This document shows, in pieces, positions 1 through 19,037 of a stretch of 64,000 nt of DNA. Made by a program: the position numbers and the translations under genes. A model generated the notes under the pieces. It was not told the origin of the DNA. It searched no databases and was given only the letters and a program-made list of their open reading frames with translations. The first letter of the stretch is position 1. Each line of letters begins with the position of its first letter. The stretch comes from an uncultured Bacteroidia bacterium (lineage in GTDB: Bacteria; Bacteroidota; Bacteroidia; Bacteroidales; UBA932). The stretch is taken from contig CADBYT010000007.1 of the NCBI GenBank assembly GCA_902798975.1, positions 1 to 64,000 of the forward strand, in the 5' to 3' direction.

Positions 1-1
1 C

Positions 2-1974: not shown

Positions 1975-2022
1975 TGAGGCTTACTATCTGGATTATAAGC
2001 CCCATCATACAAGGATGTATCG

Positions 2023-4878: not shown

Positions 4879-4884
4879 AGATTG

Positions 4885-7800
4885 CTAGGGTCTAGGCAGT
4901 CGTTCAATTTTTATTCCGTATTCCGGTGATGCGGCATCAAACTCCTCAATCCTTGCTTTCCTCCAGTAGTCCTTAGCGATCTTCTGGCAGTCCTTTTTAA
5001 GCCTTGAATCTGCTTCATAATCTGCCTCGGCGCCATAAAGGTCACGAATGCGCTCATAAGACTTTGTCAATTCAAGATCTGCCAATGAAATACGAACGAT
5101 ACGGAATGGTTCGTCAGGATGCTTCTGCATGAAAGCATTTTGTGATTTATGAATATAGAGAGGAACTGCCTCCTCTTTGAAGGAGTACAGATTCGTTTTC
5201 ACATCGACGTACAGAGTTGGACGAGCATCTGTTGCTGGAAGCATAAAGTCATAATCTCCTACACCATGTGACGCTGCATAATCGTACTTTATGTCGTTAT
5301 TCTCAAGATACTGTTGATAGATGAGCTCACCGATGTAGCCGATAGTCTTACGAACCTTTGACTCCATCGATTCATCGTCATCCTGGAAGTCCTCAAGAAG
5401 ATTCTTGATCTTGTCTTTATTCTCGGCTACTGTCTTGAGCTCCTCTTCAGTTAGCCCATCGAGAATGTCTTTGACCGTGTCTAGGTTGTCATTGAGTTTG
5501 TTCAAGGTGTTTTCTCCGAGTTTGCCAGCCATCTCGACGGCCTTCTTCTCATTCTCATCAAGGGCGTTCGGGTCGATACCATTCTCGACCATATCGACGT
5601 AGATGCTCTGCAGCGAGATGAACGGGTTCTTGAAGAAATCCTGAGCCTTGGCAACCCTTTCGAGAGTTTTCATCTCGGTGAGTTCTTCGGCATTGGGATG
5701 TTGTATAACAACGGTCTTGGCATCCTTGTCGAACCCGAAGAGGTCGTTACGTGAAGAAATCTTCAGAGCCTCATTCCCAGAGGACTCGTCAGTGACAGTT
5801 ATGACAATGTTTACAGGTTGTTCACTGATGAAAATCCTTACGCCTTCGCTCTCGTCGGTTGTCCTCCACTGCGTGTAAACCTTCGCTCCCCATTCCTGGT
5901 ACTCTTTCTTCTCGGCCGTGGTATTGATGCGGTAGCGGGTGTAGAAATTGAGGTTTTGACGGGTGAAATAGTTGAGGTTGTAACCGCCAATCTTATGCTG
6001 ACGGAAAAAACTCTTCAGGGTGGGCTTGTTCTCAATTTGGACGGTGTTGTTATAGACGTTGTCGAACTCCATCAGGACCATCTCTTCGTCTAGATATTCG
6101 AAGGACAGGATCATGTGCGACATCCCGTCCTGCTCCTTTTCGAAGGTCGGTGTGTATCGGAAAACTGGAATGTCGTCTGTGTCTTCAGGAAGCCTGTCGA
6201 GGAGGGTCTTGAGAGTATCAAACCGAGAATCAGTATACATGAAAGGAATTTTGTATTGCTGATTCACTATCCATTGTACGGTTCTCGAGAGCCGATCTGC
6301 GTCCTCCACCACGCCGTTGAAAGCGAGGAAGGGCAAGCCATCATGAATGGCGTTACGGATGGCAATATAGTCGTCTGCGACCGTATGTAATCCTTTCAGA
6401 AGGCTGATGGCTTTCTGCGGGTCTTTTGCGATCCAATTGAAGATATCGACGGGTAGTTTCTCTTCGTCCAGAAGGAGGCCCTCATCGGCGTACACCTGCA
6501 GCTCCTTGTTAAATCCCGCCATCTTGAAGTACTCATCGAAGCCGGCGAAGTTGTTCTCACCGATCATCACCAAAGCGTCAGAGAGGGGAGTGTCATCGCT
6601 AATCTCCAGCTCCTTGTATTCGCACTTCTTTTGGATGGAGTAATCCAGGCAGAAACGGAGCTGCTCGAGGTCGAGATAGCAGTTATGGAGCTCATCATAG
6701 ATGTCCTCCGGAGATAGCTCTTCCTGGTTGTTAGCGTAGACTGTGCTCCGGAAAGCCGGGGCATCAGGGATGCATGCAAGGAATTTGTCGACAAGCTCGT
6801 TTTCCGTCTTGCTGTCGTGGATGAGCTTGTAAAGGTCGTAATCGGTGCCGTTGAAGCGTACCATGTCCGATTTGATGGAATCCGGAAGCCGCTCTCCATT
6901 GAACATGATAAGCTTCAGGAGCTTCTCCCTGTAATCATAATTGCTTCCGCCTTCGGAGATCTTCGTCATGGCATAGCGGATGACCTGCCATTCGGGGTCT
7001 TCCTCGGCGATATCATCATTTACATAGAGGTTGGGGAGACGGTTGAAATATGCAGTTACTATGGCCTCGTTATGCTTTCGTGCGACAGGAAGCAGTTTTG
7101 GGAGCTGTCCCGGATGGATCTTTGTGATGACGGACTCCATCATCTCGTGAGAGGTGGTAAGCTCGAATTCGGCCAACTGTGACCTGTCGAAGTAACGGCA
7201 GACCTCAGGAGAGATGCGGCAATACCTGATGGTGTCAAGGGCCTGGTCAATCGCCTCGGACTCAATGGCGCATGTATAGTTGGTCTCGTTCAGGAGCTTA
7301 ACGATGCGGTAATTGTTCTCACTCTGCTGAGTGACCTTGAAGCTCTTGAGAATCCTCGTTCCAGCAACACTGACGATACAGCCCAGAAGGCGGGAATCCA
7401 CAATGGCTCCCTGGCCGATGATGTCTCCGATGGAGGCTCCTTCAGTCTCGAAAGGAGCTTCAGAGAGGATCTTCTTGAACTGAAAGGGGACAATGGAATA
7501 CCCCTTCGTCTCGGCGAACATGGCGATGCGATCATACTGTTCGCTATCTAGATGCTCGTCCTTAAGGAGGAAGGTTTTGTTTGTTGTGGGTACACCATCA
7601 ACGTCAAGGTATAAATGAAGACGGTCGCTTGGCTCTTCGGCATCTTTATAGACACTAATAATGTCCTTTAAGTATGCCTGATGCTGTGTGCCCCAGTCGG
7701 GGAGGGTGGTGAGTTCGTCAAAGTTATCCAAGAGCCAATTCCAGATCTCTTTCTTGCCGGTGATGAAAAGGTCATTGAGGCCTTCGACATTAGGTATGTA

Positions 7801-9846
7801 GCCATAGGCACAGTAAGAATCAAACAGGATAGTGTCCTTCGGCTTTTGACGGAGCATCTGTTTGAAAGGCCTGTACTTGCCATCCGGTCCTTGGAAAAGA
7901 GATACAAAATCCTTGAGCGCCTTTTCTGCTCTTGAGAAGCGCTTGGCGTCCACAAGGACGCGGCAAGCTACGTCCACACTGTCGTCTCCGTCCCTATAGA
8001 AATCGATCCTCTTTACAATCTTTTGAACATTGATGGTTCCGTTATTGCTGGTTCCGTCCTGACTCAAGAAACTGATAGGGCCGAGGATATACTCGACTTT
8101 GAGGCTGCGGTCAAGATGCTCATGTCCCGCTTTCTCGTCATAGAGAAGGACTGGATTATCGGCAGAAATAACCTGCTCGAGGCTATAGACGTTGCCTTTA
8201 TTAGTTCTCAGGAGAGGTTTGCTGAAAAGATCCGCGTCCTCCTTACTGAACTTCACGAAATGCTCGTGGAACTTAAGGTAATCCTCTTTGGGGAGGTTCG
8301 CTATCCATGCGGCGAGTTTGGACTTGTCTGCTGCCAGAAGAACCTCTTTCAAGGGCCAAGGCTCTGCCTTGATGCCGAAATTTGTAAGTTCTTTCTTGGC
8401 GATATCCTCGCTTATCCACTGGTATTGAGTAATGCCGACTTGCGATAGCGGAATCAGCTTGCTAAGATCATTAGGCGTGCGGACCTTTTCCTCGGGGAGA
8501 TATGATCCTTCCTGCGTCTTGACATTCTGCTTGAAGAACGGGCCGAAGACGTTGTAGAAGGGCTCCCTAATAAATAGAACGTCTTCTTTCTTCAAAGGAT
8601 GGGACGCAATGATGGCATCGTAAAGGTAGTGGAACTGTTCAGGGTTGTGGGCCCTGGTGTTTTCCACCTGTTCAAGGAGATTCTTGAAGGCCTCCTTTAA
8701 TTGAAGGCTGGTTTTATGGGTGTCATTGATTCTCTGACGACTGTCATCAGGTTCAAAGTTCTGGGAATCAATGATGAATCCTAGATTATAACGAGCTTCG
8801 GTTATTGGGAGAGTCTTGTACAGGGAAACAACGCCGTCTTTGGCGAAGTCCGGATTGAACGCGAACTGGTAAGAGAACTTTTCTTCCGCATCCGGGAGTT
8901 TGTAATTGATAGGCAGGTATTGAACATTGTGCTGCATCTCAACTTCCTGATTGTTCACAAGAATGCGTTCAAGGTGCCTTCCGTGGTTCTTTTCCTTGTC
9001 TGCTGTTAGGGCGGCGAAACCGCCAAGACGAGAGAGTACCTTTTTGATGTTTCCTTCGTCCGCAATGGCTTCGCTCTGACCTTTACCGAGGGGAACGATA
9101 AGTGCAGATCCCGTGTTAAGGCGGACGATGCTACGCTTGGGATTGACGAGACGTTCGAAAGCGGCACGGATATCACTGAACTCCCTATCGGTAAAAAACA
9201 CATCGTCAACACCTGGTGCAACTGGGTAGTATGTCATGAGAATTTTACATACAAGGAGATCAGGCTTTTCAGCATAAGGATCCGTAAGTGTCCATTCGGA
9301 CTCCGTCTGGAAACGGAAGTCAGACAATTGATCGGGGTTCCCCCAACTGACAAGATAAGGCCCTTTCTTCTCTTGTTTGATGGCCTTGATAAGGAGGGAT
9401 CGATTACTTGCCAAGCCCTTATCGGGAATCAGAGTGTAGAGTAGTTTTGAGCCCTTACCGAACTCCCCGCTTTTGGTCTCGTCGCCGGCCTTGGGAGATT
9501 TGCCTTTGGTAAGAAAATTAAAAAGTTGCCCGTCGGGGAGTTTTGTTTTGTGATCCCAAAAATCGGTATAAAAAGGAATGCCGTTATTAAGTATAATGAG
9601 ATAGCTCTCATCGAAATAAAAACATAGAGAATCCGCATGAGCATCAAAAGCATTCTGAACGAACTCGTAAAATAGCTGTTCTTCGGAATCCTTCGCGAAA
9701 CTCGCTACTTCCCGTATTGTTGTATCCAACTGCTGGGTAACTCCATAAATACGCTCAAGAAACGGCTCTTCATCCGTCCCCAAGAGCGAAAGGCTTGACC
9801 CAGGGCAATATCCTTTTAGATATTTCTCTATGTCGCGAATCTTCAT
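4885..9846 (-). CDS. Giant GHKL ATPase with C-terminal DUF3883 nuclease-like domain
   Basis: A 1,653-residue cytosolic protein. The N-terminus has a sacsin/Hsp90-like GHKL ATPase: N-box EFVQNAFDAHAD (Glu61, Asn65, Asp68), a variant G1 box LNNGIPF at 86-92, and the glycine loop GEFGKGSK at 127-134. The C-terminal 150 residues match the DUF3883 pattern: Glu1507 in YIGELIYQQYL, GDYDF (Asp1533) and YVDVKT (Asp1548, Lys1550), a PD-(D/E)XK-like nuclease core. The roughly 1,200 residues between are unrecognised. It lies one base after the ZorB-like gene and six bases before the helicase, so it is co-transcribed with them. ATP-dependent sensing coupled to DNA cleavage is a reasonable inference. It replaces the ZorC of type I Zorya; from memory, a DUF3883 protein (ZorF) marks type III, which I could not verify here. 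Confidence 0.82.
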   Translation of the reverse strand: MKIRDIEKYLKGYCPGSSLSLLGTDEEPFLERIYGVTQQLDTTIREVASFAKDSEEQLFYEFVQNAFDAHADSLCFYFDESYLIILNNGIPFYTDFWDHKTKLPDGQLFNFLTKGKSPKAGDETKSGEFGKGSKLLYTLIPDKGLASNRSLLIKAIKQEKKGPYLVSWGNPDQLSDFRFQTESEWTLTDPYAEKPDLLVCKILMTYYPVAPGVDDVFFTDREFSDIRAAFERLVNPKRSIVRLNTGSALIVPLGKGQSEAIADEGNIKKVLSRLGGFAALTADKEKNHGRHLERILVNNQEVEMQHNVQYLPINYKLPDAEEKFSYQFAFNPDFAKDGVVSLYKTLPITEARYNLGFIIDSQNFEPDDSRQRINDTHKTSLQLKEAFKNLLEQVENTRAHNPEQFHYLYDAIIASHPLKKEDVLFIREPFYNVFGPFFKQNVKTQEGSYLPEEKVRTPNDLSKLIPLSQVGITQYQWISEDIAKKELTNFGIKAEPWPLKEVLLAADKSKLAAWIANLPKEDYLKFHEHFVKFSKEDADLFSKPLLRTNKGNVYSLEQVISADNPVLLYDEKAGHEHLDRSLKVEYILGPISFLSQDGTSNNGTINVQKIVKRIDFYRDGDDSVDVACRVLVDAKRFSRAEKALKDFVSLFQGPDGKYRPFKQMLRQKPKDTILFDSYCAYGYIPNVEGLNDLFITGKKEIWNWLLDNFDELTTLPDWGTQHQAYLKDIISVYKDAEEPSDRLHLYLDVDGVPTTNKTFLLKDEHLDSEQYDRIAMFAETKGYSIVPFQFKKILSEAPFETEGASIGDIIGQGAIVDSRLLGCIVSVAGTRILKSFKVTQQSENNYRIVKLLNETNYTCAIESEAIDQALDTIRYCRISPEVCRYFDRSQLAEFELTTSHEMMESVITKIHPGQLPKLLPVARKHNEAIVTAYFNRLPNLYVNDDIAEEDPEWQVIRYAMTKISEGGSNYDYREKLLKLIMFNGERLPDSIKSDMVRFNGTDYDLYKLIHDSKTENELVDKFLACIPDAPAFRSTVYANNQEELSPEDIYDELHNCYLDLEQLRFCLDYSIQKKCEYKELEISDDTPLSDALVMIGENNFAGFDEYFKMAGFNKELQVYADEGLLLDEEKLPVDIFNWIAKDPQKAISLLKGLHTVADDYIAIRNAIHDGLPFLAFNGVVEDADRLSRTVQWIVNQQYKIPFMYTDSRFDTLKTLLDRLPEDTDDIPVFRYTPTFEKEQDGMSHMILSFEYLDEEMVLMEFDNVYNNTVQIENKPTLKSFFRQHKIGGYNLNYFTRQNLNFYTRYRINTTAEKKEYQEWGAKVYTQWRTTDESEGVRIFISEQPVNIVITVTDESSGNEALKISSRNDLFGFDKDAKTVVIQHPNAEELTEMKTLERVAKAQDFFKNPFISLQSIYVDMVENGIDPNALDENEKKAVEMAGKLGENTLNKLNDNLDTVKDILDGLTEEELKTVAENKDKIKNLLEDFQDDDESMESKVRKTIGYIGELIYQQYLENNDIKYDYAASHGVGDYDFMLPATDARPTLYVDVKTNLYSFKEEAVPLYIHKSQNAFMQKHPDEPFRIVRISLADLELTKSYERIRDLYGAEADYEADSRLKKDCQKIAKDYWRKARIEEFDAASPEYGIKIERLPRP

Positions 9847-9847
9847 G

Positions 9848-10624
9848 CTAGAAATTAATATACGGGATTATCTGAATGACAAATGTTTTGTTTCTATTTT
9901 CCCCCTCTGGGTCTTGAGAAGAATACTTATATCGATGTTGACCACCAAATCCGGCACCACTCACAAACAATTCACCCGGATATACATGAGAGGTGTCAAC
10001 CTTTGTGGCAGATTTAGCCGGGTCATTATAAAGCAAATCGGCAAGGATGCCTTTTTTTCGCCACAGTTCTACAACGGTGAGTGCCCGCTTATAACTGTTT
10101 TCTAATCCTTGTTTCCATGCTGCTGGATTGTTCTCCGGTGTAACCCAATCCGCCCCTCCATTTTGGAGGTTGTTGGCAAGACGTCCTTCAACTATTACCT
10201 TGAATTTGACACCAGTGGTCTTCGTAAATTGCGTAAGAATTGAATCCAACTCTTTCCCCGCATTCATCAGCGGCTCAATATATTCCGGCCTTATGTTCTC
10301 GAAATCATTTGCGGTAAACTGAACATCAATCTTACACTCAAAACGCTTATACTCCTCATTATACCGGAAGTACTCCGAATTGAGGGACTTCTGAGCGTCT
10401 TGGAACTGCCGAATCTTTTCATACAACTCAGCATTGATGATGATATCATTGACATTTGCCTCGGTGATGCCTTTCTCATGGTATAGGTCAACATAGACTT
10501 TATAGCTTGAATAGGCTACCAAGCTTGCGATGATGAACACAATCAGGAACCCGGACATAAGGTCCGTATAGTTCTGCCAGAAATTGTGTTCTTCGCCGTC
10601 GTTATGAAAGTTCAGTCGTCTCAT
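9848..10624 (-). CDS. zorB: ZorB-like MotB/OmpA-family inner-membrane protein
   Basis: A 258-residue protein with one N-terminal transmembrane helix (about 22-40). This is preceded by the MotB/ExbD-type segment NYTDLMSGFLIVF, whose Asp21 sits where the proton-binding aspartate of flagellar-type stators lies. The periplasmic part (about 85-258) has an OmpA/MotB-like arrangement: VQFTANDFENIRPEYI (beta strand then helix), a VIVEGRLAN strand and SYKRALTVVELW. It overlaps the ZorA-like gene by four bases. Together the two would form a stator-like motor complex anchored to peptidoglycan, the membrane part of Zorya defence. The assignment rests on gene order plus the aspartate and topology. Confidence 0.85.
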   Translation of the reverse strand: MRRLNFHNDGEEHNFWQNYTDLMSGFLIVFIIASLVAYSSYKVYVDLYHEKGITEANVNDIIINAELYEKIRQFQDAQKSLNSEYFRYNEEYKRFECKIDVQFTANDFENIRPEYIEPLMNAGKELDSILTQFTKTTGVKFKVIVEGRLANNLQNGGADWVTPENNPAAWKQGLENSYKRALTVVELWRKKGILADLLYNDPAKSATKVDTSHVYPGELFVSGAGFGGQHRYKYSSQDPEGENRNKTFVIQIIPYINF

Positions 10625-11991
10625 TTGGCGCTAATTCTGGAGAGGACGGATTCAAGTCTTTCGAGAGTAGCAATAGCACTACTCAATGACTCTATGCGCA
10701 TCACTATAGCCTCCATATTGGTCTCCTTGTCTTCAATAAGTTTGACAGCCTTTTGGACACTCTCATTGGTCTGACCGACTTCTTTTAGGCTTGTGTTTAC
10801 GGTAACAAGTCCCTTCTCGACCCTCTCGTTGAGATCGTGAGCGTTCTTAACTGCATCTCGGTACGACTCGGAAACCTGTTCATAATTGGAGATAATGCTG
10901 GCTGACTTGTCATCGATGAACTCATAAGCTTCCTGGAGCTTGCCAATGTTCTCGACAAGGGCTTCTTTGAGGACCTTGATCTGCTCACCAACTCCATTGA
11001 TGATAGAAGTCGTTGTCTCGGAGAGAGAACTGCTCATCTTGGCGATGAGTTCTTCATTGAACTTGTTCTGTTCTTTTGATGCCTCCATATGTAACGATAG
11101 GGAATCGTCAGCGAGTTTCTGGAGGGACTCGTTCTGCTTACGAGTGAGTTCTTCAATGCCAGAGACAGTATCGGTCTTAAGATTCGCCACAGCAGTAGCA
11201 AGGGTTTCTTTAATGGCCGCCAAATCGGCTGTTGATGCGTCTGTCATAGTCTTTACAGACTCATTGTGGGCATCTATAATACCCTTGGCGTCTTCACCGA
11301 GTTTCTTGGTAATATTCTCGAGAATCTCGCGACTCTGAGTGTACTGCGTCGTGCCGAAATTAGACACCCTCTCTTCAATAGTGGTGTTCATGGCCTCAAA
11401 TGTCCCCTTCATCTTATCCATGAAAGTATCCACGAAGGTGGACAGAATAGCACTCTGGGCCACAATACTATCATTGAGTTTGTCGTTGTTGGCGGAACTG
11501 ACCTCCATTAACTGCTGAACATGCTCATCCACCGCTTGGAGAGCGGTCTCTGGGTCTTTATACTTAAGGGTTCCGACAAGAGCAGCATCTTCGAAAGCAA
11601 ATCTAATCTTGGCATAAATTGTCGCGAAAAAGGCAAAGACTAGACCATAAATAGAGGTAGAAAACGCCGGAATAAGATCTGCGATGATTCTCCTTAAATC
11701 TAGACCCCCGGACGTTTTTGCCGCTTCTGCTACGGTCATCCCCAGATCAGACGATGCAATTGTTTCGGCAGAAATGCCTGCCAAGGAATAACAAATAGCG
11801 CAAAAGGTTCCCAGAATACCAAGCGAGGTGAAAAGGCCTGGCATAGATGTAAGAAGAGTACGGGATTTCGTCCTTTTGTAGTAAATTGAGAATACGACGA
11901 GAACAATGATGTCCAACGACAGAATAAGCTCATTCCACCAATTGGCCCAAGGAATCAGCGTTCTTAAAAAATCGCCCATATTTAAATGCAA
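10621..11991 (-). CDS. zorA: ZorA-like MotA/TolQ-type motor protein with long coiled-coil tail
   Basis: A 456-residue protein. Hydrophobic segments lie at about 20-37, 52-72 and 102-126, with the MotA/ExbB-like stretches PGLFTSLGILGTF and AFSTSIYGLVFAFFATI. From about residue 150 to the end it is almost continuous amphipathic, coiled-coil-forming sequence, as expected for the long cytoplasmic tail that distinguishes ZorA from flagellar MotA. It is the first gene of the operon. A second ATG four codons downstream (11,979) is an equally possible start. Family knowledge: ZorA pentamers around a ZorB dimer form a proton-driven rotor whose tail signals phage infection to cytosolic effectors. Here those effectors would be the GHKL-DUF3883 protein and the helicase. 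Confidence 0.86.
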   Translation of the reverse strand: MHLNMGDFLRTLIPWANWWNELILSLDIIVLVVFSIYYKRTKSRTLLTSMPGLFTSLGILGTFCAICYSLAGISAETIASSDLGMTVAEAAKTSGGLDLRRIIADLIPAFSTSIYGLVFAFFATIYAKIRFAFEDAALVGTLKYKDPETALQAVDEHVQQLMEVSSANNDKLNDSIVAQSAILSTFVDTFMDKMKGTFEAMNTTIEERVSNFGTTQYTQSREILENITKKLGEDAKGIIDAHNESVKTMTDASTADLAAIKETLATAVANLKTDTVSGIEELTRKQNESLQKLADDSLSLHMEASKEQNKFNEELIAKMSSSLSETTTSIINGVGEQIKVLKEALVENIGKLQEAYEFIDDKSASIISNYEQVSESYRDAVKNAHDLNERVEKGLVTVNTSLKEVGQTNESVQKAVKLIEDKETNMEAIVMRIESLSSAIATLERLESVLSRISAK

Positions 11992-12270
11992 TAGAGTCTT
12001 GAGTGTAACGAAATATATTCTGGTAACAATCTAAAATATAACCACAAAATTACATCACACTGGCGAACTGTAAGTTCGCAGAGGAAGGCGTTGTGGCAAT
12101 AGTTTTAATTGTCCCATTGGATAAGAACAAATATAAGAAATGTTTCGTTGCGAAAGTAAGGTTCCTATTCTATTTGAGGAAAGAATTGGTTATCACTGAA
12201 AGAGACCCTGAATGCATTATCGTCTTCTTCTAATAAATCGTAGACAATCCTGCTTAGAAAACAAGGCTAT
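11992..12270 (-). promoter_or_regulatory. Upstream region of the Zorya-like operon
   Basis: 279 AT-rich bases without a supported gene. On the minus strand there are two TAnnTTTG-type -7 candidates, TAATTTTG (12,052-12,045) and TATATTTG (12,135-12,128). Neither has a clear -33 TTTG. A small hairpin, GCGAAC-N5-GTTCGC, sits at 12,064-12,080. These are pattern matches only. Confidence 0.4.
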
Positions 12271-13218
12271 TTACCACAATGAAATAGCTGCCTCTTCTAT
12301 TTTTGCTTTAAACAATGCATAATCCTTTTGGCTTTCAATTATAACGAGGTCTTTGATAACAAGTCCAGTAGTACTCTTTAATCCAATTAATTTCGCTATT
12401 CCTGGATAGCCATTTTCCACAATCTCACGGTTTGCGGAAAATGAGTCTGTTTTATATTCTTCATTTGATGGGAAATGAACAACACCAAGAGTTCGATTTA
12501 GTTTGCCAAAAGCCTTAATCGTATATTTAGATCCGCCGTCTATGGAACTTTGAACAAGGATCAATCCCAAAGAAAGACCAGCTTGAATGCGACTGACCTT
12601 GCTACCAGAGAACTGGTCTTCTTTTTGGGTAGGTTCAAATTCTGAGACAATAAGACCGCCAGCATCAAGGACATCTTTAATGATTGCAGCGTGAGAGGCA
12701 GTGCAGGTGTCTGTATAATTAAGTCCTCCGGAAATCACACCAACAGCATTATGAATGATGTGGCCGTCGACGTATATTGCATGCTCGTCAATTCCTTCAA
12801 CTAAACCGTTGCAAATTGAGAAATGATTCGAAAAATGCTTCCCTAACCTTTCCGCTATTCTGTTGCCTAAGTTTGAAGAATGACGTGTCCCGATGATAGC
12901 TACTGGCTTTTCCAATAAAGACTCATCTCCGAGCATATATAACACAGCAGGAGGATCGCTTATTGCTTTGAGCGAAGCGGGGTAGCTGCTTTCGGATATG
13001 TTGACAATCTTATATCCTTTGTCCTGACACTCTTTGATAATGCTATCGGCTCTCTTTAGGAAACGACTGGGCTCGTATGAATCGTCTACTTCAATATTTG
13101 CAGACGACACAAAACTCTCCACAGAAGAACCCATAACAATCTGATTGATGTTCTTCTTGATAAAGGCATTGCCAATACCTTTAACCATTGACAATGCTAT
13201 GATGTCCCGTGTGTTCAT
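12271..13218 (-). CDS. DprA/Smf-like (SLOG-fold) protein, accessory paralogue
   Basis: A 315-residue protein with an N-terminal helix-hairpin-like segment (KGIGNAFIKK) and a DprA Rossmann domain. VAIIGTRHSSNLGNRIAE corresponds to the DprA phosphate loop, ICNGLVEGIDEHA to the SGLARGID motif with Ser replaced by Asn, and SRIQAGLSLGLILVQSS to the RNRIIAGLS segment. Canonical DprA loads RecA on single-stranded DNA in natural transformation, but this copy is divergent, lies in a defence island and overlaps an unusual HAD-PRTase gene by four bases. The same fold (SLOG) includes nucleotide-binding sensors and nucleosidases. A role as sensor or enzyme in a nucleotide-based defence pair is therefore inferred. 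The substitution in the ligand loop argues against a housekeeping dprA. Confidence 0.78.
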   Translation of the reverse strand: MNTRDIIALSMVKGIGNAFIKKNINQIVMGSSVESFVSSANIEVDDSYEPSRFLKRADSIIKECQDKGYKIVNISESSYPASLKAISDPPAVLYMLGDESLLEKPVAIIGTRHSSNLGNRIAERLGKHFSNHFSICNGLVEGIDEHAIYVDGHIIHNAVGVISGGLNYTDTCTASHAAIIKDVLDAGGLIVSEFEPTQKEDQFSGSKVSRIQAGLSLGLILVQSSIDGGSKYTIKAFGKLNRTLGVVHFPSNEEYKTDSFSANREIVENGYPGIAKLIGLKSTTGLVIKDLVIIESQKDYALFKAKIEEAAISLW

Positions 13219-14492
13219 AAAATGTTTTCAGTATACCCGCACCCTTGTCCCCCGTATTGGGGTGGCGTACATGAATAAAAACGACTGCCGTCATTACGAC
13301 GGATTTTTATAAGCATCTCCTTGCCGCATCGGGGGCAAATCTTCCCGTTATATACTGGAAGGATCATTTGGAACATCGCAATGACAATCACATTAACCGC
13401 ACCGAGTTCCCGAAGTTTCCCTATAGCATAAAAAGCTGTTGCTCCTGTAGTAAGCTGGTCATCAAGAACGATGATACTCTTCCCTTTAATGTCAACGGAA
13501 TCGTCCACCTGCAAGTATTGATTGAGGAATTCTTGACGCTCTTTGTATAGATTCCTCTCCCTTAATGATCCTTGACCTTGCTCAAGCCACCTAAATAAAG
13601 TCACCTTAGGAATAGACGTATCAATAAGATCAAATATTTCCTTCATTTTGTTAGGAGGTTGGGTGGTAGATTTGTCTGTCAGATACGTAAAAACGTCCCA
13701 GGAGTACATTCTGTTGGCAAGAATGCCATCAAGATAAAACTTAACGCCGTCAGCGAGGGTCTGTAAAAAAGATTGAGGTCTGTTAGAATTGGAAATCTGA
13801 AAATACTTGTCTGCTCTTGCAAACTGGTCGCAAGATCCCTGCTCTTGTCTGGCCAGACATCTTATTATTCCGAAACTTCCATCTTTATATCGTATGTCGG
13901 AGAACCTTATGGCTATGTTACTGATGAAGCCGGAGAAAGCAGCCTCGATACTGGGCAAATGCCCCATCGGATTATTTAGTATGTCACGGACTTCATTGAA
14001 ACTTTTTGCGTAAAAGGTTGGCCCCATCTTTTGATTTCCACGCTTGTCGCCGACACCGTCCCGAACACTAATGTTTTCTTCCTTTACGATATATTGCATC
14101 AGAAGAATCGTCATAATACCAAGTCTACGTCCTGTTTCGATGTCTAGTTTTGTATCGCCTATGAAGAAGCATTGCGATTTGTCCTGAAGCAATGCTTGAA
14201 CATCAGGCTTTGTGGCGATAAAAGAATTGAGTTTTACTGTGTTCGGTTTATCCGCCAGTTCTATTCCTTCCAAACCGAAAAGAGCTTTGAACTTATTGAC
14301 ATAACGCGGGTGAGAATCAGAAACTAGTATAATAGTATGGCCAGAATTCCTGAAGTCACGTATAAAATCCATCGCCCCGAAAAATAGATGGACACGGGAA
14401 ACATCGACCTCCGCTTGCCCATCCCTAAAAGGCGCCCAGGAAGGATGAGTTGTATCGGTAAGGGTTCCGTCAAGGTCGACAAAAATAAGCAT
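13215..14492 (-). CDS. HAD phosphatase - phosphoribosyltransferase - zinc-ribbon fusion
   Basis: A 425-residue three-part protein. Residues 1-135 are a HAD hydrolase: motif I FVDLDGTLTD (Asp5, Asp7), motif II Ser58, Lys87 and motif IV GDTKLDIETG (Asp113, Asp117). After a middle region of about 190 residues comes a type I phosphoribosyltransferase with the PRPP loop IIVLDDQLTTGATA (Asp344, Asp345, Thr348-Thr349), as in ComF and purine PRTases. The end holds four cysteines (386, 389, 408, 418) in a topoisomerase-I-type zinc ribbon that could bind nucleic acid. The gene overlaps the DprA-like gene by four bases, so the two are made together. ComF-like PRTase plus DprA recalls competence, but the HAD domain and island location point to nucleotide-modifying defence chemistry. 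That function is inferred. Confidence 0.75.
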   Translation of the reverse strand: MLIFVDLDGTLTDTTHPSWAPFRDGQAEVDVSRVHLFFGAMDFIRDFRNSGHTIILVSDSHPRYVNKFKALFGLEGIELADKPNTVKLNSFIATKPDVQALLQDKSQCFFIGDTKLDIETGRRLGIMTILLMQYIVKEENISVRDGVGDKRGNQKMGPTFYAKSFNEVRDILNNPMGHLPSIEAAFSGFISNIAIRFSDIRYKDGSFGIIRCLARQEQGSCDQFARADKYFQISNSNRPQSFLQTLADGVKFYLDGILANRMYSWDVFTYLTDKSTTQPPNKMKEIFDLIDTSIPKVTLFRWLEQGQGSLRERNLYKERQEFLNQYLQVDDSVDIKGKSIIVLDDQLTTGATAFYAIGKLRELGAVNVIVIAMFQMILPVYNGKICPRCGKEMLIKIRRNDGSRFYSCTPPQYGGQGCGYTENIL

Positions 14493-14509
14493 ATCAAAAA
14501 TGATTTCTA

Positions 14510-14517
14510 CAAAGATA
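14510..14517 (-). promoter_or_regulatory. Putative -7 box for the HAD-PRTase/DprA-like operon
   Basis: On the minus strand 14,517-14,510 reads TATCTTTG, a perfect Bacteroidota TAnnTTTG box, 18 bases before the start codon at 14,492. No convincing -33 TTTG is seen at the usual distance. Confidence 0.5.
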
Positions 14518-14553
14518 CTGATTATTCCTCATAGGACGATATCTTTTGTATCC

Positions 14554-14742
14554 TTAGTGGTATTTGGCGATGTGAAGAAACCTCTGCTTCAACTTGGGCG
14601 AGGATTTTACGATGCTTTCTGGCCTGTTTTCGCGCACATTCTCGGCTCTTGCGCATTTGTCCTTTGCGGTCCATAACTCGGCCTCTATGCGGGCGATGGT
14701 GGCGTCACGGTTCTTCTGTGACAGTTTGTAACCTGCTGATTC
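14554..14742 (-). pseudogene. Possible gene remnant at the island edge
   Basis: A minus-strand frame is open from the nuclease junction down to a TAA at 14,556-14,554. It reads as a charged, helical C-terminal tail (for example KNRDATIARIEAELWTAKDK, ending HIAKYH). It has no start codon or upstream part here, as if its front was lost when the nuclease sequence was joined. A second minus frame starting MDRKGQMRKSRE is also open, so the true frame is uncertain. I do not recognise the product. Confidence 0.3.
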
Positions 14743-14747
14743 CGAAC

Positions 14748-15332
14748 ATGGTGGCCTACGAGCTGACTGCCGAAGAACTTGACGGCAACGTCCCCCGGGC
14801 CAGATCTTTCAGCATGGACCTGAGCTACCACGGCCGCCAGGCGATGCGCGAGGACTACAGCAACACCGGCTGGGACAAGGGCCACATGGCTCCTTCGGCC
14901 GACATGAAATGGTCGCAGACTGCGATGACCGAAAGCTTCTACCTGACCAACATCTGCCCGCAGAATCCCGACCTGAACGGCCGTGACTGGCATACTCTCG
15001 AGAACCGTGTGCGCGACTGGGCGCGCCAGTACGGCCGCGTCTGGGTGGTCTGCGGCCCGCTCGTACAGGACAATCATTACGGAACAATAGGGGAGCGACA
15101 GGTCACGATCCCAGACGGCTTCTTCAAGGCCGTCCTGAGACGGGAAAGCGACGGCTCCTTCCGCGCCATCGCCTTTATCTTCGAAAACAACTCCATCCGC
15201 CAGCCTCTCAAGGACGCCGTCATCACGGTGGATGACCTTGAAGTTCTTGCCGGCTACGACCTCTTCCCGAACCTGGACGACACCATCGAAGAAGTCGTCG
15301 AATCCACCGCCTTCTGGGAAGCCTGGCGTTAG
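14748..15332 (+). pseudogene. DNA/RNA non-specific endonuclease (NUC1 family), 5'-truncated
   Basis: The sequence from the ATG at 14,748 encodes the body of a NUC1/EndA-type beta-beta-alpha-metal nuclease. The catalytic box is DKGHMAP, with His as general base and Lys where Arg is usual. The metal-binding segment TNICPQNPDLNGRDWHTLE and VWVVCGPL follow in the right order. Relatives in Bacteroidota are secreted proteins with a signal peptide and about 60-80 residues before this point. Here the frame continues upstream only as Arg/Cys-rich sequence (from 14,649) that does not look coding, and the base composition changes at the same place. I therefore read it as a gene that lost its 5' end, probably at the island insertion. 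It could still be translated from the internal ATG as a cytoplasmic fragment. Confidence 0.75.
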
Positions 15333-15335
15333 CCT

Positions 15336-16252
15336 TCAGAAATCTTTAATCCTTTTCAACAACTCCTCCGGGTTTAGATCGAGCATGAGGGAAAAGGCGA
15401 ACCACTTTTTGCCGAGGTCTTGCAGGGAGGCGCCGACGTGGTAGACCTTGTCGTCTATGATGAGAAAGCGGTCATGCGCCTTATTGAAGGGATATACATC
15501 AATAGGGATATATTGCGCGTTGTGCTTTTTGATATCCAGCTTTAACTGCGGCGTTATCTTTTGGGTATAGATGGTTGCCGTGACGGAGGGTGCTCGCTTA
15601 TCCAAAATGGTCAGCACGGATTCGTCTACGTAATTGTCAATCAAGACAATTTGGGATTCTGCGCTTTTTATCAGGCCCGATACAAATTGGTAGGCGTCGA
15701 AGACCTGTCCATCTAGAAGATGTTTTGCTTGGGAATAACAGACCGTTCCTCGAGTTTGTCAAATAGCAGTTCTATTTTATTGTCCGTTTCTAATTGCTTT
15801 TGTTCCACTTGACCAAGTCGTTGGAAAATCTGAGCGTTTGTGGCAATAAAATGACGCATGGCGACAAAGGCATCCATGATTCTAATACTTATATCAATGG
15901 CTTCATCGCTATGTAAAACTGAGGAAAGCATCGCAACCCCTTGTTCGGTAAAAGCGTATGGCGGGTTGGGGCTATGCTTCAACGAATTCAACCTATCGCA
16001 TTTTGCGATAAGTTCATCAGTCTCACATGGGGTTAGTTTGAAACGAAAAGATTCCGGGAATCTTCGAATATTCCTTTTGACTTGTTCGTTTAATCTATAT
16101 GTTGGGACACCATATAGTGCGGCCAGGTCTTTGTCAATAATTACTTGAACTCCCCGTATCTTCAGAATTCGATCCTCAATCAATCTCTGGGGTAACGTCT
16201 GCGATTCTATCGACAGGTCGTTGGCATTCTTTTTTCTATTTTTCTTTTCCAT
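15336..16252 (-). pseudogene. ORF6N-domain protein with PLD-like C-terminus, broken by a frameshift
   Basis: The first part (16,252-15,713, start MEKKNRKK; the longer TTG start overlaps a TACATTTG promoter box at 16,269-16,262) is an ORF6N DNA-binding domain: ILKIRGVQVIIDKDLAALYG, then YAFTEQGVAMLSSVL. It ends at a TAG right after PKQNIF. The next frame carries on with LDGQVFDAYQFVSGLIKSAE and LIDNYVDESVLT, then a PLD-like half-site KAHDRFLIIDDKVYHVGAS, down to 15,336. Intact relatives read from one part into the other without a break. Between TTC (15,718-15,716) and GAT (15,713-15,711) only two bases remain, so one base is missing. It is either a real frameshift mutation or a sequencing error. 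The protein would be a DNA-binding regulator or nuclease often found with mobile DNA. Confidence 0.8.
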
Positions 16253-16412
16253 CGCCGGATGCAAATGTATCAGGGTAAATATACGAGGAAAATAATAAGA
16301 AAAAGAATATTAATCGTTTAATATATAAACTACTGACACACAGCTGGTTGCGCGAGCACTGCGTGATATAAAAACGTATTTTTAAGGTGGTAAATAGTGG
16401 CTTTAATTATTT

Positions 16413-17204
16413 CTACACCGTATACTTGCAAACAATCTCACTGAGAATCCTATGATTCTCTAAGCTATTCGCCCCGACAAGTATGGTCGGGCCGTCGAAG
16501 TGGAGGCGGGCGCCGGCGCGGCCGGTGAGCACGCCGCCGGCTTCGGTCAGGATGAGGTAGGCGGCGGCGTAGTCCCAAGGCTGGATGCGGTATTCGAAGA
16601 AGAGCTCACACAGGCCGCAGGCCATGTAGCAGAGCTCGATGGCGCAGGAGCCGAAGCGACGGACATCGTTGCATTTCTTGTAGGCTTCCAGGATGATGGC
16701 GCTGCAGGCCTCCGCGTGCTCTTTATGATATAAACACAGCGCCGTGAGCAGCATGCTCTGCTCGAAGGGCCGGTCGGAGACATGGATGGGCTGCCCGTTG
16801 AGGCGCGAGCCGCCGCCCTTGACCGCGTCGAAGAGCTGGTCGTGATAGGGATTGTACACCACGCCGAGCAGGATCTCGTCGTCGCCACGAAGGGCCACGG
16901 AGATACAGCATTCCGGGATCTGGCGGGCGAAATTGGCCGTGCCGTCGATGGGGTCCACGATCCAGACGTATTCGTGCTGCGTGTCCAGCAGATCATTCTC
17001 TTCGCCGAGGAAGCCCGAGCCCGGCAGCAGCGCGCGCAGCTCCTGATAAAGGAAGTCCTGCACGGCCAGGTCGGCGCTGGTGCAGAGGTTTGTGACGGAG
17101 CCCTTGGTCTTGACCAGCAGATGCTCCCGGTCCATCATCAGCCGGGACGCTTCCCGGACGGTCGCCTGTACCCGGGGAAGCAGCAGATTCAGATCCAGTT
17201 GCAT
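16413..17204 (-). CDS. Inositol-monophosphatase-family phosphatase
   Basis: A 263-residue Mg-dependent phosphatase of the IMPase/CysQ/SuhB superfamily. The signature WIVDPIDGTANFARQIPE is the IMPase motif 1, with Asp-Pro-Ile-Asp as metal ligands. GEEND before it supplies the metal-binding Glu, and RIQPWDYAAAYLI is the C-terminal WDxAA motif. I start at MQLDLNLL because the longer reading (17,222) runs into the end of the preceding gene. It is the last gene of the nadE operon. The substrate cannot be told from sequence (inositol phosphate, 3'-phosphoadenosine phosphate or NADP-type compounds). The operon with NAD synthetase makes a nucleotide substrate plausible but unproven. Confidence 0.88.
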   Translation of the reverse strand: MQLDLNLLLPRVQATVREASRLMMDREHLLVKTKGSVTNLCTSADLAVQDFLYQELRALLPGSGFLGEENDLLDTQHEYVWIVDPIDGTANFARQIPECCISVALRGDDEILLGVVYNPYHDQLFDAVKGGGSRLNGQPIHVSDRPFEQSMLLTALCLYHKEHAEACSAIILEAYKKCNDVRRFGSCAIELCYMACGLCELFFEYRIQPWDYAAAYLILTEAGGVLTGRAGARLHFDGPTILVGANSLENHRILSEIVCKYTV

Positions 17205-17214
17205 AGTCAAAATA

Positions 17215-17625
17215 TTATTCAACCATCGTGGCCATCATGGCCTCGTAGAGGGCGGGGAAGCGCTCGGCGATGACGGCCGGACGGCCGCCGTCGAAGAAGC
17301 AGTGGGTGCTCTCGGCGGTGCAGACGATCTTGCCCGCCACGCGCATCGTATAGGCGATGATCAGCTTGACTTCGCTGAGAGATTTGACCTTGACCTCCAC
17401 TTCAATCACGTCTTTGAAGGTGGTGGTTTTCTTGTAGTTGACGCTCACGCCGACAACGGGGGAGACGATCCCCTCGGCCTCCATGCGGTCGAAGCCGTAG
17501 CCCAGCTGGTCCAGCCAGTCGATGCGGGCTTCTTCCATGAAGCGGATATAGTTGGAATGATGGGTGATGCCCATCTTGTCGGTCTCGTAGTATTTGACTT
17601 CGTGCAGGTAAGGTTTCGTCGTCAT
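17215..17625 (-). CDS. Hotdog-fold acyl-CoA thioesterase (YbgC/FadM family)
   Basis: A 136-residue single hotdog domain. YYETDKMGITHHSNYIRFME is the 4HBT signature, with the catalytic Asp in the ETDKMGITHHSNY box. The length matches the 4-hydroxybenzoyl-CoA thioesterase family. It hydrolyses acyl-CoA or acyl-ACP thioesters; the exact substrate is unknown. Its start overlaps the end of the symporter gene by four bases, and the inositol-phosphatase gene follows 10 bases after its stop, so it is an internal gene of the operon. Confidence 0.87.
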   Translation of the reverse strand: MTTKPYLHEVKYYETDKMGITHHSNYIRFMEEARIDWLDQLGYGFDRMEAEGIVSPVVGVSVNYKKTTTFKDVIEVEVKVKSLSEVKLIIAYTMRVAGKIVCTAESTHCFFDGGRPAVIAERFPALYEAMMATMVE

Positions 17626-19034
17626 GATTTGCGCTTTTTGGAAACGGAGGATTCATATTCCCGCAGGGCCTTGATGGCTTGCGGACAGAGGAGGATCAGC
17701 ACGATGACGTTGATCCAGGCCGTCAGGCCCACGCCCACGTCGCCCAACTGCCAGATGACGTTGGTCTCGTGCTGGGCGCCGAAGATGACCATCGCCAGCA
17801 GCGAGAAGCGGAAGATCCAGATGCAGACCTGTTCTGTTTTCTTCTTTTCCGGCCGGTCCGCAAAGATCTGCATGATGCTGGACTCGCCGTAAAAGTAGTA
17901 GGCCATCACGGTCGTGAAGACGAAGAACACGAGGGCGATGCTCACGAAGGTGCTGCCGAAGCCCGTCAGGACGGAATCCACGGCCGCCTGCGTGTAGCCC
18001 ACGTAGTTGTCGCCAAGCTGCGGCGCACCGGCCACGAGCAGCTCGCCCGTCTTGGCGTCGAGGATGTTGTAGGTGCCCGAGCAGAGGATCATCAGGGCCG
18101 TGGCCGTGCAGATGAGCAGCGTGTCCACGTAGACCGAGAAGGCCTGCGCGAGGCCCTGCTTGGCGGGGTGCGAGACGGCTGCGGAAGCGGACACGATGGC
18201 GCCGCCGCCCTGGCCGGCCTCGTTGGAGAAGATGCCGCGCTTGACGCCCATCATGATGGTGGAGCCGAGGATGCCGCCCGCCACGGGCTGGATGCCGAAG
18301 GCGCCGTCGAAGATGGCCTTGAACACACCCGGCACGGCGTCCAGGTGCTGGGCGATGACGACCAGTGTGATGATGATGTAGCCCAGGGCCATGAAAGGAG
18401 TTACGATTGAGGCCACGCGGGCAATGCTCTTGATGCCGCCGATGATCACGAGGCCCAGCAGAAAGGCGAGGCCGAGCCCGGAAACGAGCGGGGAGAGCTG
18501 GAAGGAATTGTCCAGCGCACCGGCCATTCCGTTGGCCTGCACCGTGGGCAGGAAGGTGCCGTAGCCCACCAGGACCAGGACGGAGAAGAGGATGCCCAGC
18601 CAGCGGCGTTTCAGTCCCTTCTCGATATAGGACGCAGGTCCGCCGCGAAAGCCCGTGGCGTGGTGGAATTTGTATTTCTGGGCGAGGGTGGACTCCACGA
18701 AGGCCGTGGAAGCACCGAAGAAGGCGATGATCCACATCCAGAAGATAGCGCCGGGGCCGCCCAGGGCGATGGCCGTGGCCACGCCGACGATGTTGCCCGT
18801 GCCCACGCGGCCCGACAGGGCGACGCAGAATGCTTCGAATGAGGATATACCGTGCTGCCTGCCGTCCGGCGACTTCTCCGCGCGGGCGAACAGCGAACGG
18901 ATCATCAGTCCGAAACGGCGCACCTGCACGAAGCGGGTCCTGACGGAAAAGTAAAGACCGGCTCCCACCAGGAGCACGACCAGGGCGGGGCTCCAGATGA
19001 TGTCGTTGAGGACGGAGACGATTCTCTCGAACAT
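17622..19034 (-). CDS. Alanine/glycine:cation symporter, AgcS family
   Basis: A 470-residue integral membrane protein with about ten hydrophobic helices. Family signature segments are GRVGTGNIVGVATAIALGGP followed by FWMWIIAFFGAST, and GVKRGIFSNEAGQGGGAI, a hallmark of sodium:alanine symporters (AgcS/AlsT/DagA). It imports small amino acids with Na+ or H+. It sits three bases after nadE and overlaps the thioesterase gene by four bases. Length and topology are normal. Confidence 0.92.
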   Translation of the reverse strand: MFERIVSVLNDIIWSPALVVLLVGAGLYFSVRTRFVQVRRFGLMIRSLFARAEKSPDGRQHGISSFEAFCVALSGRVGTGNIVGVATAIALGGPGAIFWMWIIAFFGASTAFVESTLAQKYKFHHATGFRGGPASYIEKGLKRRWLGILFSVLVLVGYGTFLPTVQANGMAGALDNSFQLSPLVSGLGLAFLLGLVIIGGIKSIARVASIVTPFMALGYIIITLVVIAQHLDAVPGVFKAIFDGAFGIQPVAGGILGSTIMMGVKRGIFSNEAGQGGGAIVSASAAVSHPAKQGLAQAFSVYVDTLLICTATALMILCSGTYNILDAKTGELLVAGAPQLGDNYVGYTQAAVDSVLTGFGSTFVSIALVFFVFTTVMAYYFYGESSIMQIFADRPEKKKTEQVCIWIFRFSLLAMVIFGAQHETNVIWQLGDVGVGLTAWINVIVLILLCPQAIKALREYESSVSKKRKS

Positions 19035-19037
19035 TGC

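What the first reader, a model, noticed from the sequence alone, without database searches (positions are those of the whole stretch)
12271..14492. DprA-like protein paired with a HAD-phosphoribosyltransferase-zinc ribbon fusion
A four-base overlap ties a divergent DprA/SLOG protein (NGLVEGID in place of SGLARGID) to a single polypeptide holding a HAD phosphatase, a ComF-type PRTase and a topoisomerase-like zinc ribbon. It combines a nucleotide- or ssDNA-sensing fold, PRPP chemistry and a dephosphorylating domain inside a defence island. It could deplete or modify nucleotides on infection. I know of no characterised system with this three-domain fusion.
Basis: partly seen in the sequence, partly recalled or inferred. 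Interest (0 to 1): 0.8.

Follow-up and report, generated by a model that had tools for sequence, protein, structure and literature searches.

The report
Divergent ShosTA-like defence gene pair
Two overlapping genes in a bacterial defence island look like a distant relative of ShosTA, a known anti-phage toxin–antitoxin pair, in a form that keeps an apparently intact phosphatase domain and adds a zinc finger, neither of which the best-studied ShosT toxin has.

Summary
In detail: minus-strand ORFs 13215-14492 (425 aa: HAD, PRTase, C4 zinc ribbon) and 12271-13218 (315 aa, DprA-like) share an ATGA overlap in a low-GC defence island. But the fusion is not unknown. The structurally solved toxin ShosT is an HAD-like/PRTase fusion beside a DprA-like antitoxin, and the three-domain form with DprA occurs in phage PfAC02a (deposited as ShosT), a Psychrobacter plasmid and rhizobia. 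The window effector aligns end to end with a profile of four such relatives (hhalign 99.4%, 382 columns), and that branch aligns with ShosT (98.6%, 324 columns). A housekeeping ComF aligns only at the PRPP loop. The window protein alone does not reach ShosT beyond that loop, and PADLOC's ShosA/ShosT models also hit this genome's own dprA and comF. All 7 full-length genome-scan loci have an adjacent dprA.

What differs: HAD motifs I and IV are intact here and in 19 of 27 partner proteins (9 from one lineage), but degenerate in the solved ShosT.

Best reading: a divergent member of an HAD-competent, zinc-ribbon branch of the ShosTA superfamily, probably acting by abortive infection through PRPP/nucleotide chemistry. 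Mechanism inferred.

The parts
13215..14492 (-). ShosT-like effector (425 aa), first gene of the pair
   Evidence: aligns end to end (382 columns) with a profile of four HAD-PRTase relatives, probability 99.4, E 2.6e-21.
14076..14492 (-). HAD domain, about residues 1-139, with Asp6, Asp8, Ser58, Lys95, Asp113, Asp117
   Evidence: Giving Ser58 (Thr in relatives) to motif II is recalled knowledge of HAD enzymes.
13353..13676 (-). PRTase core, about residues 273-380, PRPP loop VLDDQLTTGAT with Asp344/Asp345
   Evidence: The domain start is approximate.
13221..13343 (-). C4 zinc ribbon, residues 384-424 (Cys386, 389, 408, 418)
   Evidence: PF01396 19.8 bits, below its cut-off of 32; all four Cys invariant in alignment A3.
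13215..13218 (-). ATGA stop/start overlap joining the two genes
12271..13218 (-). ShosA-like DprA/SLOG protein (315 aa), second gene
   Evidence: PF02481 110 bits; match to solved ShosA 9vzo_A, E 1.3e-19; profile with six relatives matches P2 ShosA, probability 99.7.

Best explanation
The pair is a strongly diverged member of the ShosTA superfamily of DprA/PRTase toxin-antitoxin defence modules, in a branch whose effector keeps an apparently competent HAD phosphatase and carries a topoisomerase-type C4 zinc ribbon. Shown here: the overlapping gene pair, domain order, intact motifs, conserved pairing in relatives, and a defence-island setting. Inferred: in uninfected cells the DprA-like protein binds or counteracts the effector. 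A phage-caused disturbance of replication or transcription, or exposed ssDNA, releases it. The PRTase then uses PRPP to make an aberrant nucleotide product or to drain a purine/PRPP pool. The HAD dephosphorylates the product and so drives the reaction. The zinc ribbon holds the enzyme at ssDNA. DNA damage and growth arrest block phage production (abortive infection). Membership of the superfamily about 0.85; toxin-antitoxin style defence about 0.75; nucleotide-level PRTase chemistry about 0.55; HAD acting on the PRTase product about 0.35.
For: Window effector to branch: a profile of four relatives that leaves the window out matches it at 99.4%, E 2.6e-21, 382 columns (control with the genome's own ComF 91.2%, E 1e-6, 37 columns). 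Branch to ShosT: 98.6%, E 5.5e-16, 324 columns from the HAD start to the PRTase end (controls ComF 91.7%, 47 columns, and DprA profile 0.3%). The solved ShosT (8zvb, 8zvc, 8zvd, 9w2p, 9w2q) matches the 424-aa protein of phage P2_4C9 end to end and ShosA 9vzo/8zva matches its DprA neighbour. A P2-like phage DprA+PRTase system protects against T7 and lambda (PMC9122126, passages; that it is this same protein was not checked). ShosT is described as PRTase and pyrophosphatase disturbing purine pools, with ShosA counteracting it (review PMC12593503 on Pu et al. 2025, passage). In the related RqlH the PRTase domain is needed for toxicity, D663A removes most of it, and RqlI (DprA-like) restrains RqlH and needs that domain to bind (PMC4670107, passages). 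Adjacent dprA in 7 of 7 full-length genome-scan loci. HAD motifs I and IV intact in 19 of 27 partner proteins. Defence neighbours in the window.
Against: The window protein on its own matches a four-member ShosT profile only at the PRPP loop (50.5%, 57 columns), BLASTP with P2 ShosT sees 43 residues, and a narrower window-plus-rhizobial profile scored hardly better against ShosT (95.1%; 97.0%) than against ComF (93.9%). The link therefore runs through the branch. PADLOC is not diagnostic: the genome's own dprA scores better on ShosA (3.7e-50) than the window protein (5.1e-38), and its own ComF scores better on ShosT PDLC03962 (29.6 bits) than the window effector (24.6 bits). The full-length ShosT model PDLC03012 matches neither the window effector nor the PfAC02a one. 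Identity to fused relatives is 21-29%. The window DprA has the longest branch of the tree. The RqlH PRTase domain alone is not toxic. The studied ShosT has a degenerate HAD, so its mechanism need not carry over. Nothing was tested at the bench, and the primary mechanism paper could not be read.
Confidence: 0.75

Rival explanations
1. A natural-transformation module: DprA and a ComF-like PRTase that handle incoming ssDNA, with an HAD fused on.
For: DprA and ComF are competence proteins; the PRTase part matches TIGR00201 at 3.2e-5, below cut-off; PADLOC and profile scores do not separate it well from ComF at the PRPP loop.
Against: The genome has another dprA (C4) and a proper comF (C10). The locus lies in a low-GC island among defence genes. 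No competence gene was recognised among the neighbours looked at in relatives, which include Kiwa, SIR2, SoFic, TrlF-like ATPases, an integrase and a transposase, but also ordinary genes such as thiC, an omptin and an ABC transporter.
Confidence: 0.05
2. A signalling module of the Ter kind: PRTase and HAD make a nucleoside-like messenger that the DprA/SLOG protein senses.
For: Ter systems pair PRTases and HAD phosphoesterases, proposed to make nucleoside signals (PMC7824862 and PMC5512222, passages); SLOG proteins are proposed nucleotide-ligand binders (recalled).
Against: No TerB/TerC/TerD protein was recognised among the neighbours scanned; in characterised relatives the DprA-like protein restrains or counteracts the PRTase.
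Confidence: 0.1
3. The HAD and zinc ribbon make it a DNA-end enzyme (a polynucleotide 3'-phosphatase type) and the PRTase is a regulatory PRPP sensor.
For: The zinc ribbon resembles the topoisomerase DNA-binding kind (below cut-off); the PfAC02a relative weakly matches PNK3P (21 bits, cut-off 22); DprA relatives bind ssDNA (PMC9122126, passage).
Against: The HAD is degenerate in the solved ShosT, so it cannot be the effector of the whole superfamily; in RqlH the PRTase is needed for toxicity.
Confidence: 0.1

Closest known systems
ShosTA of an E. coli P2-like phage (P2_4C9; ShosT PDB 8zvb/8zvc/8zvd/9w2p/9w2q, ShosA 9vzo/8zva; PADLOC PDLC03012/PDLC02997)
   Same: Two genes; HAD-like then PRTase in one polypeptide of nearly the same length (424 vs 425 aa); DprA-like partner; mobile DNA.
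   Different: P2 ShosT has Ser and Ala in place of the two HAD motif I aspartates and no zinc ribbon; its dprA comes first, here it comes second; the window protein alone matches only at the PRPP loop.
ShosTA of Pseudomonas phage PfAC02a (OR790968)
   Same: HAD-PRTase-zinc ribbon fusion followed by DprA, same gene order, intact HAD motifs; annotated ShosT/ShosA in the record (PMC11878078, passages).
   Different: Two zinc ribbons, genes do not overlap, about 24% identity in alignment A2.
HAD-PRTase-zinc ribbon + DprA pairs of rhizobia and kin (S. fredii, Bradyrhizobium, Mesorhizobium, Ensifer, Pseudolabrys)
   Same: All three domains, intact HAD motifs, adjacent dprA.
   Different: dprA comes first; no 4-base overlap; 25-29% identity.
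PsyrTA / RqlHI
   Same: PRTase-dependent toxicity restrained by a DprA-like partner (PMC4670107, passages).
   Different: The effector carries a RecQ-type helicase, absent here; PADLOC PsyrT did not match the window effector at 0.01.

Membership tests
ShosTA superfamily | Two adjacent genes, PRTase effector plus DprA-like partner | tested here: met
ShosTA superfamily | Effector homologous to ShosT beyond the PRPP loop | tested here: met
   Met through the branch: window to branch 99.4%, 382 columns, branch to ShosT 98.6%, 324 columns, with ComF and DprA controls. Not met by the window protein alone and barely above ComF with a narrower profile.
ShosTA superfamily | Partner is ShosA rather than a housekeeping DprA | tested here: inconclusive
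   PADLOC ShosA does not separate the two; the tree puts the window DprA with partners of intact-HAD effectors, but on a very long branch.
ShosTA superfamily | Intact PRPP-binding motif | tested here: met
   VLDDQLTTGAT, Asp344/345.
ShosTA superfamily | Toxic effector neutralised by the partner; protection from phage | not testable with these tools
   Needs expression and plaque assays.
P2-type ShosTA (degenerate-HAD branch) | Match to the full-length ShosT model PDLC03012; Ser in HAD motif I | tested here: not met
   No match to PDLC03012; Asp6/Asp8 intact. So it is not filed in this branch.
PsyrTA / RqlHI | RecQ-like helicase fused to the PRTase | tested here: not met
   No helicase match in the 425-aa protein.
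Competence DprA/ComF | The genome's dprA and comF | tested here: not met
   Another dprA and a proper comF lie elsewhere; window neighbours are defence genes.
Ter stress/immunity system | TerB/TerC/TerD components nearby | tested here: not met
   None recognised among the proteins scanned between 20 and 16264.

The most novel reading that the evidence does not exclude
ShosTA systems fall into two biochemical kinds. In one, represented by the solved ShosT, the HAD is dead and the PRTase acts alone. In the other, seen here, a live HAD and an ssDNA-binding zinc ribbon are coupled to the PRTase, giving a two-step enzyme that works on DNA itself: it adds a phosphoribosyl group at exposed ssDNA and trims the phosphate to leave a lasting adduct, which the DprA partner prevents or repairs on host DNA.
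Probability: 0.1. Interest if true: 0.75.

Novelty: new variant of a known kind. Interest (0 to 1): 0.38.

Why it matters
The solved ShosT carries an HAD domain without its catalytic aspartates, so its role there looks structural. The branch described here keeps the HAD active-site motifs, and the DprA partners of the two HAD states separate on a tree (strongly for the degenerate side, weakly for the intact side). That turns a vague question (why is an HAD fused to a PRTase toxin?) into a direct comparison of live and dead HAD versions. It also corrects the idea that the fusion is an uncharacterised system, and shows that two PADLOC models used to call ShosTA (ShosA and the short ShosT model) score this genome's ordinary dprA and comF better than the window pair.

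Tried and rejected
Searches that led nowhere: viral contigs with P0002 and with P0003 gave no relative; plasmids with P0002 gave none. Full-length relatives near the host: in 395 genomes of the phylum 4 matched, own included, and the three others are 60-66-residue PRTase matches. In 200 relatives 76 matched the profile at 1e-10, but every listed match other than the window's covers at most 166 of 430 positions, that is HAD or PRTase alone. In 393 genomes of the order 2 matched, own included; the other is a stand-alone HAD in a PRTase-DprA-HAD cluster. These genome sets overlap in part. Of the 12 loci from the single genome-contig scan, 5 were dropped from the pairing count because only the HAD part matched; no DprA was found in them.

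Neighbourhoods viewed by annotation. DprA hits: of 16, 10 show an HAD, PRTase or RecQ-type partner, 4 none recognised (P. aeruginosa plasmid L011, Legionella, Fusobacterium, SopEPhi), 2 carry no annotation and were not examined (L019, L030). PfAC02a-effector hits: of 6, 4 have DprA (in R. beringeri, seen, it lies in two frames) and 2 show none annotated (an IS-cut fragment, L023; a lone HAD at a record end, L025).

PADLOC's ShosA and ShosT hits were first taken as support and then discounted after controls with the genome's own dprA and ComF. The first profile comparison with ShosT was discounted after ComF scored nearly as high and was replaced by broader profiles. The winged-helix domain was tried as a mark of housekeeping DprA and rejected: Pfam does not see it in the genome's own dprA. 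A strict test that the 16 rows labelled intact-HAD form one clade was rejected (p-AU 0.00127), probably because an unlabelled P. aeruginosa plasmid DprA (L011) falls inside the group. The labels were set after an earlier tree had been seen, which lacked the own dprA because my pattern missed it; one E. coli row (L014) was labelled from its near-identical neighbour, not from its own motif.

In print: the search 'ShosTA', 'haloacid dehalogenase', 'zinc ribbon', 'DprA' (3 of 4 needed) gave 0 papers. The library is partial and the primary ShosTA paper (Pu et al. 2025, Nat Commun 16:3141) is not in it, so absence from print is not claimed.
Full report
What is there. Two minus-strand ORFs overlap by ATGA: 13215-14492 encodes 425 aa and 12271-13218 encodes 315 aa. 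The 425-aa protein has an N-terminal HAD domain over Pfam's cut-off, and a PRTase region and C4 zinc ribbon that are below Pfam's cut-offs on their own but are plain once relatives are aligned: Asp6, Asp8, Lys95, Asp113, Asp117, Asp344, Asp345 and four Cys are invariant in the window protein and four diverse relatives. The 315-aa protein is a DprA Rossmann/SLOG protein with a diverged signature, NGLVEGID.

Setting. In 1-kb steps GC is 39-47% over most of 1001-14000 (50% between 6001 and 8000), then rises; from 17 kb to 30 kb, the end of the profile, it is 59-67% except for one step of 52%. The next genes on the same strand are ZorA-like, ZorB-like, TmtA-like and a DrmD-like helicase. A reverse transcriptase of the retron/defence kind is cut by the window start. 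A DNA/RNA non-specific endonuclease and PDC-S05 proteins lie on the other side. No tRNA was found in 1-20000. The genome has another dprA on contig 4 (E 5.3e-62) and a 255-aa comF on contig 10 (E 2.9e-18, below the family's curated cut-off, which only 2 of 14 control genomes reach). This argues against the pair being the genome's competence DprA/ComF.

What it is, and what does not show it. PADLOC names the partner ShosA (5.1e-38) and weakly names the effector ShosT (4.7e-6, residues 333-377). Neither call is diagnostic. The genome's own dprA scores 3.7e-50 on the same ShosA profile, and dprA genes of Legionella and Fusobacterium beside ordinary genes score 4e-66 and 2.8e-66. The genome's own ComF scores 1.4e-7 on the short ShosT model, better than the window effector. 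The full-length ShosT model matches the P2 protein and a P. fragi one but neither the window effector nor the PfAC02a one. A first profile of the window effector with six rhizobial-type relatives matched a two-member ShosT profile at 95.1%, E 3e-8, over 307 columns and a four-member one at 97.0% over 280 columns, but the same profile matched the genome's ComF at 93.9%, E 1.6e-7, over only 36 columns at the PRPP loop, so these scores rest mostly on that loop. The window protein alone against four ShosT proteins also aligns only there (50.5%, 57 columns), and BLASTP with P2 ShosT sees 43 residues.

What shows it. A profile of four other HAD-PRTase proteins (PfAC02a, Psychrobacter, Ensifer, R. 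beringeri), made without the window, aligns with the window effector end to end, 382 columns, at 99.4% and E 2.6e-21, against 91.2%, E 1e-6, 37 columns for ComF. The same branch profile with the window included aligns with four ShosT proteins over 324 columns, from the HAD start through the linker to the PRTase end, at 98.6% and E 5.5e-16, against 91.7% and 47 columns for ComF and 0.3% for a DprA profile. Two further negative controls of the first profile gave 0.2% and 0.3%. A stand-alone HAD from a Sinorhizobium PRTase-DprA-HAD cluster matches the intact-HAD profile at 99.0% but the degenerate ShosT profile only at 8.5%. The solved ShosT, with five PDB entries, is the 424-aa protein of the P2_4C9 phage (977 bits end to end), an HAD-like domain followed by a PRTase. 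The DprA profile aligns to P2 ShosA at 99.7%, which by itself does not separate ShosA from other DprA.

Relatives. Pseudomonas phage PfAC02a carries HAD-PRTase-two zinc ribbons followed by DprA, annotated ShosT and ShosA, next to Kiwa (PMC11878078, passages). A small Psychrobacter plasmid has the same order. In rhizobia DprA comes first. One genome-contig scan gave 12 loci; 7 hold the full-length fusion and all 7 have DprA directly upstream, while the other 5 match only the HAD part. PRTase, DprA and HAD also occur as separate genes in that order (Sinorhizobium, Segatella, and one genome of the window's order). A Deinococcus plasmid has an HAD-DprA fusion, with no PRTase recognised. E. coli plasmids have one protein with HAD and PRTase motifs and a RecQ-type helicase beside DprA. 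Of 10 neighbouring proteins chosen around seven fused loci (six genome loci and S. fredii), PADLOC matched 5 (SIR2, SoFic, two TrlF/Ppl-like ATPases, and an ABC protein that is probably an ordinary transporter) and 5 not at all. Pfam on nine of those ten also showed an integrase, an IS110 transposase, an omptin, a DUF6119 protein and thiC. None is a competence gene, but not every neighbour was scanned, and one of the seven genome loci (L035) was not.

HAD state. Of 27 partner proteins compared by motif, 19 have motifs I and IV intact (9 of them one close rhizobial lineage), 5 (P2, NT-25, S. alkalisoli, P. fragi, Bermanella) have Ser for the nucleophilic Asp and a changed motif IV, and 3 show no motif I by my pattern. 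Motif IV of the E. coli, Bermanella and P. fragi proteins was read by eye from printed sequences. Thirteen of 27 have a CxxC pair of the zinc ribbon and 12 of 27 have all three domains; 9 of those 12 are the one rhizobial lineage. On a 29-row tree of the DprA partners the degenerate-HAD group (5 rows) is one clade with support 100/99. The intact-HAD group (16 rows) lies on one side of a branch with support 76/72 (74% of bootstrap trees), not counting unlabelled rows. A strict one-clade test of the intact group failed (p-AU 0.00127), probably because an unlabelled row falls inside. The window DprA has the longest branch (3.14), so its place is unsure.

How it most likely works. Published for relatives: a P2-like phage DprA+PRTase system protects against T7 and lambda, with abortive infection proposed (PMC9122126, passages). 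ShosT is reported as a PRTase and pyrophosphatase that disturbs purine pools and leads to DNA duplications and death, ShosA counteracts it, and T7 Gp0.7 triggers it (Pu et al. 2025, known here only through a passage of the review PMC12593503). RqlH toxicity needs its PRTase and is largely removed by D663A, though the PRTase domain alone is not toxic, and RqlI needs that domain for binding (PMC4670107, passages). By homology the window pair should be a PRTase effector restrained by its DprA-like partner. The live HAD and zinc ribbon are extra. The likeliest role of the HAD is to dephosphorylate the PRTase product, and of the zinc ribbon to hold the enzyme on ssDNA. Both are inference. The degenerate HAD in the studied ShosT means the reported pyrophosphatase activity cannot simply be given to a normal HAD active site there.

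Novelty. The kind of system is known and the three-domain form has been deposited under the ShosT name. What I did not find stated, in a partial library, is the split between intact and degenerate HAD branches. The window member is a rare outlier of the intact branch: full-length matches were found only in its own genome among 395 phylum, 200 near and 393 order genomes, sets that overlap in part.

Noticed in passing
window 2023-11991 (minus strand): Four tightly packed genes: ZorA-like (456 aa), ZorB-like (258 aa), TmtA-like sacsin-ATPase (1653 aa, PADLOC TmtA 5.8e-177) and a DrmD-like SNF2 helicase (951 aa). Of 200 near genomes 4 have the TmtA-like protein, own included; the 3 others keep the same four genes in the same order, and no DprA was found in the 17-18 kb fetched around each. 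It looks like a conserved Zorya-like system in which a TmtA-type protein stands where Zorya I has ZorC (PMC11890865, passage); perhaps worth a finding of its own.
   Followed up: partly
L075 12264-14402 and L076 12627-14762: In two of those relatives an ORF of 711-712 aa lies directly upstream of the ZorA-like gene on the same strand; in L075 it is a UvrD-like helicase, L076 was not scanned. In the window the ShosTA-like pair sits at that place.
   Followed up: no
window 2-1974: A reverse transcriptase of the retron/defence kind (YADD motif, cut by the window start) followed by an overlapping 339-aa protein with no PADLOC or Pfam match.
   Followed up: no
window 15336-16264: Two ORFs match successive parts of one PADLOC PDC-S05 profile (ORF6N protein), so this gene may be interrupted. 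Not mended.
   Followed up: no
L020 5222-6755 and L065 3279-4812: On NT-25 and S. alkalisoli plasmids a second, different DprA gene with a small neighbour on the same strand lies tail to tail with ShosTA; the NT-25 neighbour has a PRPP-loop motif.
   Followed up: no
L014 and L026: E. coli plasmids carry DprA next to one large protein with HAD, PRTase and RecQ-type helicase parts, a bridge between ShosT and RqlH/PsyrT; in L026 it is followed by an IS1 element.
   Followed up: partly
PADLOC profiles PDLC03961, PDLC02997 and PDLC03962: The ShosA models score ordinary DprA proteins highly and the short ShosT model scores an ordinary ComF, so ShosTA calls resting on them alone may be false.
   Followed up: yes
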